Source: a virus. From it: a DNA stretch of 32,868 nucleotides. The stretch covers positions 1-32,868 of IMG/VR virus record IMGVR_UViG_3300042520_002253; one strand, given 5' to 3'. Below are positions 1-32,868 of the stretch, one piece after another. The notes below the pieces were generated by a model. It was not told where the DNA came from and searched no databases. It saw only the letters and a program-made list of their open reading frames with translations. Position 1 is the stretch's first letter. Every line of letters begins with the position of its first letter. A program made the translations under genes and the position numbers.

Positions 1-127
1 CTTCTGAAAAATACGCTTCCTTTTTACCTCCAATTGCACCCCTTGAATAGCAAGTAGTATTGTATAGCTTTCTAATTGCGATATGCTTTGCGTATGCTGA
101 ACTAACATTGAACTTTTTACAAATCTT
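1..127. repeat. 127-bp terminal direct repeat, left copy
   Basis: Bases 1-127 are identical to bases 32742-32868. A repeat of exactly 127 bp is what a de Bruijn assembler leaves when a circular or circularly permuted molecule is assembled with k=127, so I read it as an assembly overlap, not a biological terminal repeat. The gene crossing the join stays in frame, which supports circular closure. A true short terminal repeat cannot be excluded from sequence alone. Confidence 0.9.
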
Positions 128-29667: not shown

Positions 29668-29977
29668 TTCTAAACTTTATAAATTCTTCACCTTTTTTGG
29701 TAATTATTTTTTTCGCGTGCAACTCGTAAATATCTCTATCGTCAAATCCGTATTTCTTTACCAAACAATCCTGCAGAAACTTAATACAGTTGTCTAAATC
29801 TTGTAATTTTGAAGACAATCCAAATTCGATAAAAAGCTTGTAAGGTGCTTTTCCTACTTGCATTTGTGGAAGTAGAAGTAAAACATTTCTTTCGTATTTT
29901 TTGTATTCAACCGTCTTAAACCTGCGACCTTGGAATCCAGAATTTACTGATAGTGCTTTGATTGGTAATGTGATCAT
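29648..29977 (-). CDS. rusA: RusA-family Holliday junction resolvase
   Basis: A 109-aa endonuclease that resolves branched DNA before packaging or recombination. Residues 60-66 (DLDNCIK) match the RusA core D-x-D-N-x-x-K, giving metal ligands Asp60 and Asp62 and Lys66. The third acid is Asp79 or Asp80 (GFDDRD), at the right distance. The family is common in phages, and the 109-aa size is near normal (E. coli RusA is about 120 aa). It follows the replication genes and overlaps both neighbours slightly. Confidence 0.9.
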   Translation of the reverse strand: MITLPIKALSVNSGFQGRRFKTVEYKKYERNVLLLLPQMQVGKAPYKLFIEFGLSSKLQDLDNCIKFLQDCLVKKYGFDDRDIYELHAKKIITKKGEEFIKFRIDELII

Positions 29978-30606
29978 AATACAATTTTTCGGTTAATAGA
30001 TTCTTGAACTACAAGTTGTGCCAACAACCTTTCTTCGGTATAAATTATTGAATCAAAATCGTTTTTTTCTTGAATTTGGTTGAATTGATATTTCGCTTGT
30101 CTTTTCAGTTCAATTCTTTCAGATTCATTAAAAAACTTTGTGAATTTATTCAGCAAAACTTTTGCTTCGTACATATCGCCAATCCATTTATTGATTTTAA
30201 TGCTTTCAGCGTACTTTTTTAATGCTTGTTGATAAAATATACTTTCTTGCTTTTTTCTTTCGTTAAACTCGCTAATTTCACGCTCTAATTTGATTCTTTC
30301 ATTGTTTATTTTGTTTTTAATGTTTGAATAACGGATAATTGGGTTCATTATCTCTTGAAAAGTGATATTTTTCCAACTTTTATCAACTGGAATATCAAAC
30401 CTTTCAAAACTGTATTCAACATCTTCAACGGATAAATGATTAAACTTTGAAAATATTTCTCTTTGCGCTTTCATGATTAAATTTTCAGAAACTTGATTTG
30501 AACGTAATCCAAAGTAAATATCCAAGCAGGAAATCAAGATTCGTGTAACATCTTCAATCGCTTTTTCATAATTCGTAATCGAAGCTATCGGTTGAAAATT
30601 GTTCAT
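29974..30606 (-). CDS. Replication accessory protein (possible helicase loader)
   Basis: A 210-aa protein with start chosen at ATG 30606 (MNNFQPIASITNYEKAIEDV), because the longer form starting at 30741 would overlap the initiator gene by 176 bases and begin with a different-looking sequence. The remaining overlap is 41 bases. The protein is mostly helical, with a Lys/Glu-rich middle (NNERIKLEREISEFNERKKQ). It follows a DnaD-like initiator and precedes RusA, so it may be a helicase loader or primosome protein. No P-loop was seen. The function is from context. Confidence 0.6.
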   Translation of the reverse strand: MNNFQPIASITNYEKAIEDVTRILISCLDIYFGLRSNQVSENLIMKAQREIFSKFNHLSVEDVEYSFERFDIPVDKSWKNITFQEIMNPIIRYSNIKNKINNERIKLEREISEFNERKKQESIFYQQALKKYAESIKINKWIGDMYEAKVLLNKFTKFFNESERIELKRQAKYQFNQIQEKNDFDSIIYTEERLLAQLVVQESINRKIVL

Positions 30607-31498
30607 CCTGCTGCAATCCTTCATCGTTATTCCTTGACTGCTCAATTTCAATCCTAATTTTTTGTTTAATTCTTTCTGTAAGTTCTGTAATTCCTCGCTC
30701 CTGAATTTCGGTGCGGGTAAGTGGTTGTGTAAATGTTCCATTGTTTTTTGTTTTAGTTGTTAAATCTTTAAATATTTCCCAGTAATTAATTCCCTCTTTA
30801 TTTTTCAATCTTAATTTTAAGATAGTTTGAAAATTATTACTCCAAAAACTATCATTTCTTCCATTTTTGATTATTTGTAAAATTTGATGAAAATCTAAAT
30901 TTTCTAATCGAATTAATTTATCAATACAATCCAACCATTTGTTTTTTTGATTTTCATTTTTAGGAATAAATTGAGAATTGAAATATTGAAGAATATGATC
31001 ATAAAAATTAATTATTTCCTCCGAAAATTCATTTTTCGGGGTTATAGATTCTTTATTATCTATATTAATTCTTTTTTCTTCTTTACTTTCTTTTTTTTCT
31101 TTACTTTCTTTAATTGGTGTCATTTGCGTTTCATCTGCGTTTCGTTTGCGTGTCATTTGCGTTTCATCTGCGTTTCGTTCTCCTTGATAACTCTCGTAGT
31201 TACAAATAGTTATCCGTGTCGTTACTTGTTCCGATTTTAGTACAATCATTGAATCACTTTCGAGCAACTTTAGAAACCGTCTTACTTTTGATTTATTACT
31301 ATTCCATCGTAAAGAAAGTGAATCTAAACTATACAATAATTCCCCTCTTTTACAAGTCAATAACATACCTTTTATTACAACTTTATTATCAGAATAGTTT
31401 GCCAATACAAGTAAATCAACCCAACATTTAAACTTCCAGTCGTCTTTAAATATCCAATGTTTAACAACATTTCTATCTAATTTTATCCAGTTACTCAT
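30566..31498 (-). CDS. DnaD-like replication initiator with internal iterons
   Basis: A 310-aa protein. Residues 1 to about 95 form a DnaD/replisome-organiser-type winged helix (WIKLDRNVVKHWIFKDDWKF, LLTCKRGELLYSLDSLSLRW, SKVRRFLKLLESDSMIVLKS). Residues 112-130 contain an 11-residue duplication (RNADETQMTRK, then RNADETQMTPI) encoded by 11-bp DNA iterons, followed by a Lys/Glu-rich linker. The C-terminal part (FYDHILQYFNSQF, FWSNNFQTILKL) resembles the DnaD C-terminal domain that binds DNA or helicase. The arrangement resembles the lambda O gene, in which the origin lies inside the initiator gene. Confidence 0.8.
   Translation of the reverse strand: MSNWIKLDRNVVKHWIFKDDWKFKCWVDLLVLANYSDNKVVIKGMLLTCKRGELLYSLDSLSLRWNSNKSKVRRFLKLLESDSMIVLKSEQVTTRITICNYESYQGERNADETQMTRKRNADETQMTPIKESKEKKESKEEKRINIDNKESITPKNEFSEEIINFYDHILQYFNSQFIPKNENQKNKWLDCIDKLIRLENLDFHQILQIIKNGRNDSFWSNNFQTILKLRLKNKEGINYWEIFKDLTTKTKNNGTFTQPLTRTEIQERGITELTERIKQKIRIEIEQSRNNDEGLQQDEQFSTDSFDYEL
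31114..31176. repeat. Five 11-bp tandem iterons inside the initiator gene (candidate origin)
   Basis: TGCGTKTC occurs at 31125, 31136, 31147, 31158 and 31169 with a period of exactly 11 bp; a degenerate sixth copy (TTGGTGTC) starts at 31114. Two 30-bp stretches, 31117-31146 and 31150-31179, are identical. On the lower-coordinate side lies a T/C- and A/T-rich tract (about 31010-31112) that could melt. Iterons beside an AT-rich tract inside an initiator gene are the classic plan of a lambdoid-type phage origin. Confidence 0.65.
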
Positions 31499-31707: not shown

Positions 31708-31727
31708 AATAAATAAATTTTAATTAA

Positions 31728-31821
31728 ATAAAAAAACCCTATCAAATCGGTAGGAGTCTCACGTCTACTTCATTGACAGGGTTTCAATTTCTTTTAGTTC
31801 ACTATGTTTGAGACTCGAACT
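31728..31821 (-). ncRNA. Structured RNA with complementary hairpin loops (kissing-loop candidate)
   Basis: On the minus strand, hairpin 1 (TAGTTC 31822-31817 with GAACTA 31800-31795) has a 16-base loop containing GAGTCTCA (31816-31809). Hairpin 2 is a 12-bp stem (31784-31773 with 31745-31734, one G-U pair) with an inner GTAG/CTAC stem and an 11-base loop containing TGAGACTC (31761-31754). The two 8-mers are perfect complements, which allows a kissing interaction. Hairpin 2 is followed by a T-run, so it is also a terminator. The inferred transcription start (31821) falls exactly at hairpin 1. It may be a stand-alone sRNA or an attenuator. Confidence 0.65.
31730..31784 (-). terminator. Terminator hairpin of the structured RNA / operon attenuator
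   Basis: Stem AAACCCTGTCAA with TTGATAGGGTTT (12 bp with one G-U pair), followed by TTTTATTTAA on the minus strand. It lies about 23 bases before the ATG at 31707 with no room for another promoter, so the operon behind it must be read through this site. Confidence 0.8.
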
Positions 31822-31827
31822 ACAACA

Positions 31828-31835
31828 CAAATATA
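31828..31835 (-). promoter_or_regulatory. Promoter -7 element of the structured RNA
   Basis: TATATTTG on the minus strand, a perfect TAnnTTTG. A clear TTG is missing at -33; TTTT 17 bases upstream is the nearest match. The inferred start is the A at 31821, which is the first base of the 5-bp core of hairpin 1. Confidence 0.65.
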
Positions 31836-31840
31836 ATAAA

Positions 31841-32020
31841 TTATTTTGAATTAAAATACACTTTTCCATTTCCATACGCATCACATTTTTTTGGTGCTGC
31901 GCAACTGGTAAAAATCATTGTTAAAAAACAAATAATGATTACTAAAAGAATAATTATTCCGTGAAGAATTAACCTAACAATTCTAAATTCTTCTTCTAAA
32001 TTTGGATCACGTTCTATCAT
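31841..32020 (-). CDS. 59-aa membrane or lipoprotein-like peptide
   Basis: A short gene from ATG 32020 to TAA 31841-31843. An acidic N-terminus (MIERDPNLEEEF) precedes a hydrophobic segment (LILHGIIILLVIIICFLTMI, about 18-37), then FTSCAAPKKCDAYGNGK. Bacteroidota lipoproteins often have SC-A/G after the hydrophobic part, so Cys40 may be lipidated, although the N-terminus is longer and more acidic than usual. A plain single-pass protein is the alternative. It overlaps the previous gene as ATGA and is the last early gene before the structured RNA. A role at the cell envelope, for example in superinfection exclusion, is possible. Confidence 0.65.
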   Translation of the reverse strand: MIERDPNLEEEFRIVRLILHGIIILLVIIICFLTMIFTSCAAPKKCDAYGNGKVYFNSK

Positions 32021-32668: not shown

Positions 32669-32868
32669 AAACTATCGTATATTAATTTTTCACTTTCACT
32701 CAAATCACTAATTTTACACGTAAATCCGTTGAGCATTTCTTCTTCTGAAAAATACGCTTCCTTTTTACCTCCAATTGCACCCCTTGAATAGCAAGTAGTA
32801 TTGTATAGCTTTCTAATTGCGATATGCTTTGCGTATGCTGAACTAACATTGAACTTTTTACAAATCTT
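32665..32868 (-). CDS. Small HTH-like protein, 3' part (gene crosses the genome join)
   Basis: The C-terminal part of the 92-aa protein that starts at 202. It enters from the right edge, covers the repeated 127 bp and ends at TGA 32665-32667 after ...FTCKISDLSESEKLIYDSL. The 127 bp are counted twice in this window, so the true gene has 279 bases. The TGA overlaps the ATG of the next gene. Confidence 0.78.
   Translation of the reverse strand, partial: KICKKFNVSSAYAKHIAIRKLYNTTCYSRGAIGGKKEAYFSEEEMLNGFTCKISDLSESEKLIYDSL
32742..32868. repeat. 127-bp terminal direct repeat, right copy
   Basis: Identical to bases 1-127. Removing one copy gives a circle of 32,741 bp in which the gene at the join is intact. 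Confidence 0.9.

What the first reader, a model, noticed from the sequence alone, without database searches (positions are those of the whole stretch)
31114..31176. Helically phased iterons inside the initiator gene: a candidate origin of replication
Five copies of TGCGTKTC at an exact period of 11 bp place each site on the same DNA face. They sit between the winged-helix and C-terminal domains of a DnaD-like protein, beside a long A/T- and pyrimidine-rich tract. Lambda O and several phage initiators keep their origin in the same place. The iterons also produce an 11-residue duplication in the protein.
Basis: partly seen in the sequence, partly recalled or inferred. Interest (0 to 1): 0.7.

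Follow-up and report, generated by a model that had tools for sequence, protein, structure and literature searches.

The report
Replication origin inside phage initiator gene
A small virus of Bacteroidota-type bacteria carries five evenly spaced copies of a short DNA word inside the gene for its own replication-starting protein; the same layout, in other letters, recurs in related genes of phages of three bacterial phyla and is kept as DNA rather than as protein, so it is very probably the spot where the virus begins copying its genome.

Summary
Five TGCGTKTC sites at exactly 11 bp (31125-31176), plus a degenerate sixth at 31114, form the strongest tandem array in the 32.9-kb virus. They lie in codons for the disordered linker of a DnaD-like helicase loader, between its winged helix (WH) and C-terminal domain. 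They directly abut an A/T-rich 18-bp repeat (31069-31111) that is among the easiest 4% of the genome to melt.

The origin reading is strongly supported, although no replication was measured. Of 143 non-redundant homologues from phages of Bacteroidota, Bacillota and Gammaproteobacteria, 102 have a DNA repeat that no protein-preserving codon shuffle reproduces. In 100 of these the period is 11, 22 or 23 bp, and 100 sit at the end of the WH. Only 1 of 198 control genes shows such a repeat. Iterons are read in all three frames, use rare codons, follow the WH rather than the exchangeable C-terminal domain, and occur once in non-coding DNA. A conserved unwinding-type motif (AARAATGWAAARAATG) follows and is read in two frames.

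Intragenic phage or plasmid origins are known (lambda O, SPP1 gene 38, 80alpha gp20, pSK41 RepA). New here, as far as I could search, are the family-wide 11-bp architecture and the WH-plus-origin cassette.

The parts
30566..31498 (-). DnaD-like helicase loader / replication initiator gene (310 aa)
   Evidence: PHROG 2514 E 2e-37 and PHROG 186 E 2e-19; homologues in Cellulophaga, Vibrio and Staphylococcus phages
31181..31477 (-). winged-helix domain (residues 8-106), the predicted iteron-binding part
   Evidence: AlphaFold pLDDT about 90; structural matches to winged helices including plasmid initiator chains 4pql (Z 8.6), 4pt7 (8.3) and 5kbj 'Rep-DNA complex' (7.2) over 88-91 residues
31125..31179 (.). 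five 11-bp iterons (coding-strand consensus GAMACGCARAY); starts 31125, 31136, 31147, 31158, 31169
   Evidence: exact pattern matches; tandem repeats; shuffle and simulation tests
31114..31124 (.). degenerate sixth iteron at the edge facing the A/T-rich tract
   Evidence: 11-bp register listing
31031..31180 (-). codons for the disordered inter-domain linker (residues 107-156), which contain the iterons and the A/T-rich tract
   Evidence: pLDDT <50 at residues 107-156
31050..31112 (.). A/T-rich, strand-biased tract with an 18-bp/9-bp repeat: candidate DNA-unwinding element (degenerate form of the family motif AAAGAATGTAAAGAATG)
   Evidence: 18-bp repeat at 31069-31111, 96% matches; 60-bp stability at the 96th-99th percentile for ease of melting, while the iterons next door are the hardest stretch to melt; family motif
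30803..31021 (-). helical C-terminal domain (residues 160-232), probable helicase/host-facing part; exchanged for unrelated domains in relatives
   Evidence: model; 14 C-terminal clusters behind one WH family

Best explanation
The array is the initiator-binding half of the phage's replication origin, placed inside the initiator gene. The winged helix of the encoded DnaD-like protein binds the tandem 11-bp iterons as double-stranded DNA, one subunit per iteron on nearly the same face, forming a nucleoprotein array. This strains and opens the adjacent A/T-rich tract (31050-31112). The C-terminal domain, tethered by the linker that the origin itself encodes, then brings in the replicative helicase (host or phage) and replication starts. 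Shown here: the array, its position, its conservation as DNA, its co-inheritance with the WH, and the conserved unwinding-type motif beside it. Inferred: WH binding to the iterons, melting of the tract, helicase loading, and origin activity.
For: (1) In 143 non-redundant homologues (80% WH identity cut-off) from 416 loci, 102 have a non-codon tandem repeat beaten by 0/60 synonymous shuffles; 100 have period 11, 22 or 23; 100 start within -30 to +60 nt of the WH end, median +8.5 nt. Control: 1/198 other ORFs of the same loci. (2) In the window's own WH family all 40 representatives have best non-codon period 11 (31) or 22 (9), at about nt 320-350 of the gene. (3) Codon choice inside iterons is forced: Arg CGA/CGC 92% versus 18%, Asn AAC 94% versus 30%, Ala GCA 98% versus 51%. 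(4) The same iteron word is read in three frames as ETQ, RNA or xKR. (5) Iteron similarity follows the WH (7.27/11 when the WH is similar and the CTD unrelated) and not the CTD (5.70 when the CTD is similar and the WH distant; background 5.64). (6) A motif AARAATGWAAARAATG follows the iterons in 95/143 representatives (0/143 in the first 160 nt of the genes) and is read in two frames, 84 as (T)NKNVKN and 11 as K(Q)ECKE; where it encodes TN[KN]N..., the codons are near-fixed: first Asn AAC 52/53, later Asn (positions 3 and 6) AAT 105/106, Lys AAG 83/84. (7) Contig L585 carries three iterons plus an A/T motif in non-coding DNA and has no WH gene. (8) In the window the iterons are the hardest and the neighbouring tract among the easiest 60 bp to melt. 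(9) Precedents: 80alpha ORF20 could not be complemented in trans and ORF20-21 drive autonomous plasmid replication (PMC5499656); SPP1 oriL lies in gene 38 (PMC6316719); lambda (PMC7466680); pSK41 RepA (PMC5703833).
Against: No binding, melting or replication data for this phage or any phage with the 11-bp array; the precedents are distant homologues or analogues. 80alpha gp20 has no 11-bp array. About 29% of representatives fail the strict codon-shuffle test and some have 12-bp, codon-compatible repeats, so the array is not universal. The window's own A/T motif is degenerate. L585 is a single contig without a known initiator. GC skew does not mark an origin here.
Confidence: 0.86

Rival explanations
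1. The iterons bind the initiator, but only as an operator by which the protein controls its own operon; the origin is elsewhere.
For: Winged helices resemble many transcription factors. A DNA-level binding array alone does not prove origin function.
Against: A promoter-like TATATTTG box with a conserved leader lies upstream at about 31850, far from the array. The array is followed by a conserved easily melted motif. No comparable array exists elsewhere in the genome. Precedents in the same position are origins.
Confidence: 0.09
2. The repeat is kept for the protein: an 11-residue linker repeat with no DNA function.
For: ETQ, KRKRN and TNKN-type peptides recur within the family.
Against: Codon shuffles, codon bias, three-frame reading of iterons, two-frame reading of the A/T motif, and a non-coding copy. 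The linker is predicted disordered, and in pSK41 the equivalent linker is dispensable when an origin is given separately (PMC5703833).
Confidence: 0.02
3. The array is chiefly a recombination or module-exchange junction where C-terminal domains are swapped.
For: At least 14 unrelated C-terminal clusters follow the same WH and iterons.
Against: It does not explain fixed 11-bp phasing, co-variation of iterons with the WH, or the A/T motif. The swapping is expected if WH plus origin form one functional unit.
Confidence: 0.03

Closest known systems
Bacteriophage lambda O gene and ori-lambda
   Same: Iterons inside the initiator gene between the DNA-binding and C-terminal parts, followed by an A/T-rich tract (PMC7466680; annotated iterons seen).
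   Different: Lambda has four 18-bp iterons spaced 20-24 bp. The lambda O protein is not matched by the WH profile.
Staphylococcus phage 80alpha gp20 (ORF20) and SPP1 gene 38
   Same: Replisome organizer genes with the origin embedded, supported experimentally. 80alpha gp20 matches PHROG 186 (7e-20), as the window protein does (2e-19), and has an AATAATG-type A/T region after its repeats.
   Different: No significant 11-bp array in 80alpha gp20 and no match to the WH profile. SPP1 could not be fetched.
RepA_N plasmid replicons (pSK41, pTZ2162)
   Same: WH N-terminal domain binds Rep boxes inside rep; linker encoded by the origin; C-terminal domain differs by host genus and resembles DnaD (PMC5703833). 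The window WH aligns with 4pql, 4pt7 and 5kbj. In pPR9 a phage-like N-terminal domain plus origin replaced the pSK41 one and gave a working replicon with a new compatibility (PMC5703833).
   Different: No PF06970 match; [quoted passage not shown]
Bacillus subtilis oriC, DnaD and its recognition element
   Same: DnaD binds single-stranded TnnT motifs in the unwinding region (PMC10201434); the complement of the phage A/T motif contains TnnT motifs.
   Different: Resemblance only; there the duplex is opened by DnaA, and ssDNA binding by this protein was not tested.

Membership tests
Phage DnaD-like helicase loaders (PHROG 2514/186) | Profile match over WH and most of the protein | tested here: met
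   PHROG 2514 E 1.9e-37, residues 1-233
Phage DnaD-like helicase loaders (PHROG 2514/186) | Loads a replicative helicase | not testable with these tools
   needs biochemistry
Intragenic iteron origins (lambda-O-like layout) | Tandem iterons inside the initiator gene, after the DNA-binding domain | tested here: met
Intragenic iteron origins (lambda-O-like layout) | Adjacent A/T-rich unwinding tract | tested here: met
   60-bp stretches at the 96th-99th percentile for ease of melting, beside the least meltable one
Intragenic iteron origins (lambda-O-like layout) | Repeats maintained as DNA, not as peptide | tested here: met
Intragenic iteron origins (lambda-O-like layout) | Initiator binds iterons; replication starts there | not testable with these tools
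   needs EMSA/footprinting and origin mapping
Lambda O homologues | Homologous DNA-binding domain | tested here: inconclusive
   The WH profile does not match lambda O; remote homology not excluded
RepA_N plasmid initiators (PF06970) | RepA_N Pfam domain | tested here: not met
   No Pfam family at E <= 0.1
RepA_N plasmid initiators (PF06970) | RepA_N-type WH fold | tested here: inconclusive
   4pql Z 8.6, 4pt7 Z 8.3, 5kbj Z 7.2, but tied with generic winged helices such as CRP
RepA_N plasmid initiators (PF06970) | Semi-palindromic iterons converging on a poly-A tract | tested here: not met
   Array is 11-bp head-to-tail direct repeats

The most novel reading that the evidence does not exclude
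A previously undescribed, cross-phylum origin architecture: in phage DnaD-like loaders, 11-bp-phased iterons and a near-invariant A/T motif (AAGAATGWA-type 9-mers) are written into the codons right after the winged helix. The WH-iteron unit moves as one origin cassette among at least 14 unrelated helicase- or host-facing C-terminal domains, changing partner while keeping origin specificity.
Probability: 0.6. Interest if true: 0.7.

Novelty: new variant of a known kind. Interest (0 to 1): 0.62.

Why it matters
If right, the replication origin of many uncultured phages of Bacteroidota, Bacillota and Gammaproteobacteria can be read from sequence: look just past the winged-helix codons for 11-, 22- or 23-bp repeats followed by AAGAATGWA repeats. 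It shows how one stretch of DNA can serve as both cis-element and linker code: three 11-bp iterons equal eleven codons, so the linker repeats every 33 bp while the iterons rotate through all frames. It also makes WH-iteron recognition and domain swapping between helicase partners testable on isolated phages such as Cellulophaga phi18:3 and Vibrio 1.276.O.

Tried and rejected
GC skew as origin signal: uninformative, monotonic because nearly all genes lie on one strand. Pfam: no hit for the initiator. PDB by sequence profile: only weak matches to transcription-factor winged helices. Foldseek against PDB: no match with E <= 0.001; generic winged helices dominate. A broad WH alignment gave no scannable motif; narrower alignments worked. 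The first genome-contig scan found no relative; the second gave two Bacteroidota MAG contigs. Plasmid searches for a pPR9-like chimera with the same WH found none that could be recognised as such, so the pPR9 parallel rests on the literature. SPP1 could not be fetched. 80alpha gp20 was tested as a positive control for the 11-bp array and lacks it. Pure protein-repeat and chance readings were rejected by shuffles and frame tests. The idea that the A/T motif is a DnaD-type TnnT element (PMC10201434) is left as speculation, since runs of Asn/Lys/Asp/Glu codons give T every third base anyway. I could not read Weigel and Seitz 2006 (not in the library), so some of this may be anticipated there.

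Full report
What is there. The window is a complete-looking 32.9-kb virus record (a 127-bp exact repeat at both ends; virus record). The gene 30566-31498 (-) encodes a 310-aa DnaD-like helicase loader (PHROG 2514, E 1.9e-37) among phage replication and recombination genes (RusA-like, RecT, SbcC-like). Inside it are five exact TGCGTKTC sites at 11-bp steps, 31125-31176, and a degenerate sixth at 31114. On the coding strand the unit is GAMACGCARAY. It is the strongest tandem array of the genome; 200 simulated genomes never gave three sites at this spacing. Three 11-bp units make 33 bp, i.e. eleven codons, which is why the protein shows RNADETQMTRK-RNADETQMT.

Position. An AlphaFold model built on window relatives gives a confident winged helix (8-106), an unstructured linker (107-156) and a helical C-terminal domain. 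The iterons are codons of the linker's start. Next to them lies an A/T-rich, 93% pyrimidine tract with an 18-bp repeat (31069-31111). By nearest-neighbour energies the iterons are the hardest 60 bp of the genome to open and the neighbouring 60-bp stretches (31050, 31060) lie at the 96th-99th percentile of ease.

Is it DNA or protein that is kept? I collected homologues: named phages (L003-L015), viral contigs and two Bacteroidota MAG contigs. With the protein held fixed and synonymous codons permuted, the 11-bp self-match of the window gene (37/44) was not reached in 300 shuffles (z 4.5). In the window's WH family all 40 representatives have 11 bp (31) or 22 bp (9) as best non-codon period. 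Over all 143 representatives (WH identity <80%; Bacteroidota, Bacillota and gammaproteobacterial phages), 102 beat all 60 shuffles, 100 of them with period 11, 22 or 23, and 100 start within -30 to +60 nt of the WH end. Of 198 other genes in the same loci, one passes the same test. Inside iterons, codons are chosen against the gene's habit: CGA/CGC for Arg in 88/96 versus 76/421 elsewhere (p 2e-43), AAC for Asn in 72/77 versus 197/650. The same iteron is read in all three frames, giving ETQ, RNA(T) or xKR. These tests use related sequences, so p-values overstate independence; the size and consistency of the effect do not depend on that.

The A/T side. In 53 representatives the iterons run into TN[KN]N[VDEY][KN]N, with near-fixed codons (first Asn AAC 52/53, Asn at positions 3 and 6 AAT 105/106, Lys AAG 83/84 against a 33% AAG background). 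The DNA core AARAATGWAAARAATG occurs (<=2 mismatches) in 95/143 representatives after the WH and in 0/143 in the first 160 nt of the genes; it is read in two frames, 84 as (T)NKNVKN and 11 as KQECKE/KECKE. Two unrelated peptides from one DNA word argue strongly for selection on DNA. A scan of viral contigs for the motif ACAAACAAKAATGWWAAKAATG gave 80 loci, 77 of them in WH genes (the other three have truncated ORFs), and 68 with a strong 11/22/23-bp repeat just upstream. The window carries a degenerate copy in the second frame (KESKEKKESKEE).

Modularity. Behind the window's WH-iteron unit sit at least 14 unrelated C-terminal clusters; L019 and L020 have WHs 92% identical and no C-terminal similarity. 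Iteron similarity tracks the WH (7.27 of 11 with unrelated CTDs) and not the CTD (5.70 with similar CTDs and distant WHs; background 5.64). This is what is expected if the WH reads the iterons and the C-terminal part faces the helicase or host.

A non-coding copy. L585, an 11.2-kb phage contig with terminase genes, has GAAACGCAAAC x3 at 11 bp followed by ACAGACAATAATGTAATAATTAAATAA in DNA without a WH reading frame; no WH gene was found on the contig. SPP1, which has one origin inside gene 38 and a second elsewhere (PMC6316719), offers a parallel. One contig is an anecdote, but it is what a cis-acting element would predict.

Mechanism. Best reading: origin. WH subunits bind head-to-tail iterons (11 bp, slightly over one turn; 22 bp, and 23 as 11+12, in relatives), the adjacent A/T 9-mers open, and the tethered C-terminal domain recruits helicase. 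Binding, opening and loading are inferred from lambda O (PMC7466680), SPP1 gp38 (PMC6316719), 80alpha ORF20, whose deletion could not be complemented in trans and which with ORF21 drives plasmid replication (PMC5499656), and pSK41 RepA, where Rep boxes lie in rep, the linker is dispensable in trans and the CTD is genus-specific (PMC5703833). In plasmid pPR9 a phage-like N-terminal domain plus origin replaced that of pSK41 and yielded a compatible, working replicon (PMC5703833), the same cassette behaviour seen here by comparison.

Novelty. Origins inside initiator genes are well known, so this is not a new kind. I found no description of the 11-bp-phased array with the AAGAATGWA motif as a general feature of phage DnaD-like loaders, nor for Bacteroidota phages; the open-access library lacks the main review (Weigel and Seitz 2006), so this is stated with caution.

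Noticed on the way. Upstream of the operon (31710-31849, -) lies a conserved element of about 100 nt: promoter-like TATATTTG, a hairpin, and an intrinsic-terminator hairpin. Eight nucleotides of the first loop pair with eight inside the second. In 27 distinct sequences, six central pairs are never broken and 56 cells (nine pairs counted) are changed on both sides (shuffle mean 13.1; slid controls 5-12). The first hairpin stem forms in 27/27 (control 15.8). In 21/21 loci holding both, it precedes the initiator on the same strand. No Rfam family matches at its gathering score. This may be an unrecognised leader RNA that controls phage replication genes and deserves its own study; a DNA-level inverted repeat remains possible.

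Noticed in passing
window 31710-31849 (- strand); homologues e.g. L087:1639-1771, L018:342-479, L003:1615-1747 (Cellulophaga phage phi18:3): Conserved structured leader upstream of the replication operon: promoter-like TATATTTG, hairpin H1, then an intrinsic-terminator hairpin; 8 nt in the H1 loop are perfectly complementary to 8 nt inside the second hairpin, with about 18 different compensated versions (covariation 0.671 versus 0.189 shuffled). Same strand and upstream of the initiator in 21/21 loci with both. No Rfam family at gathering score. Possible new kissing-loop attenuator or small RNA; a DNA inverted repeat is not excluded.
   Followed up: partly
L585:1211-1265: Iterons of the window's type plus an A/T motif in non-coding DNA of a phage contig that has no winged-helix initiator on the contig.
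   Followed up: partly
window 29974-30741 (-) versus 30566-31498 (-): The next ORF overlaps the 3' end of the initiator gene by 176 bp if its first ATG is used; the ATG at 30606, preceded by GCAGCAGG, may be the true start.
   Followed up: no
window 1-127 and 32742-32868: Exact 127-bp direct repeat at both ends: the record is probably circular or terminally redundant, so the true length is about 32,741 bp.
   Followed up: no
L016-L094: One WH-iteron family is joined to at least 14 unrelated C-terminal domain types, sometimes between near-identical WHs.
   Followed up: partly
L005, L193, L229, L225: Some homologues have 12-bp (four-codon) repeats at the same place, for which DNA- and protein-level repetition cannot be told apart.
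   Followed up: no
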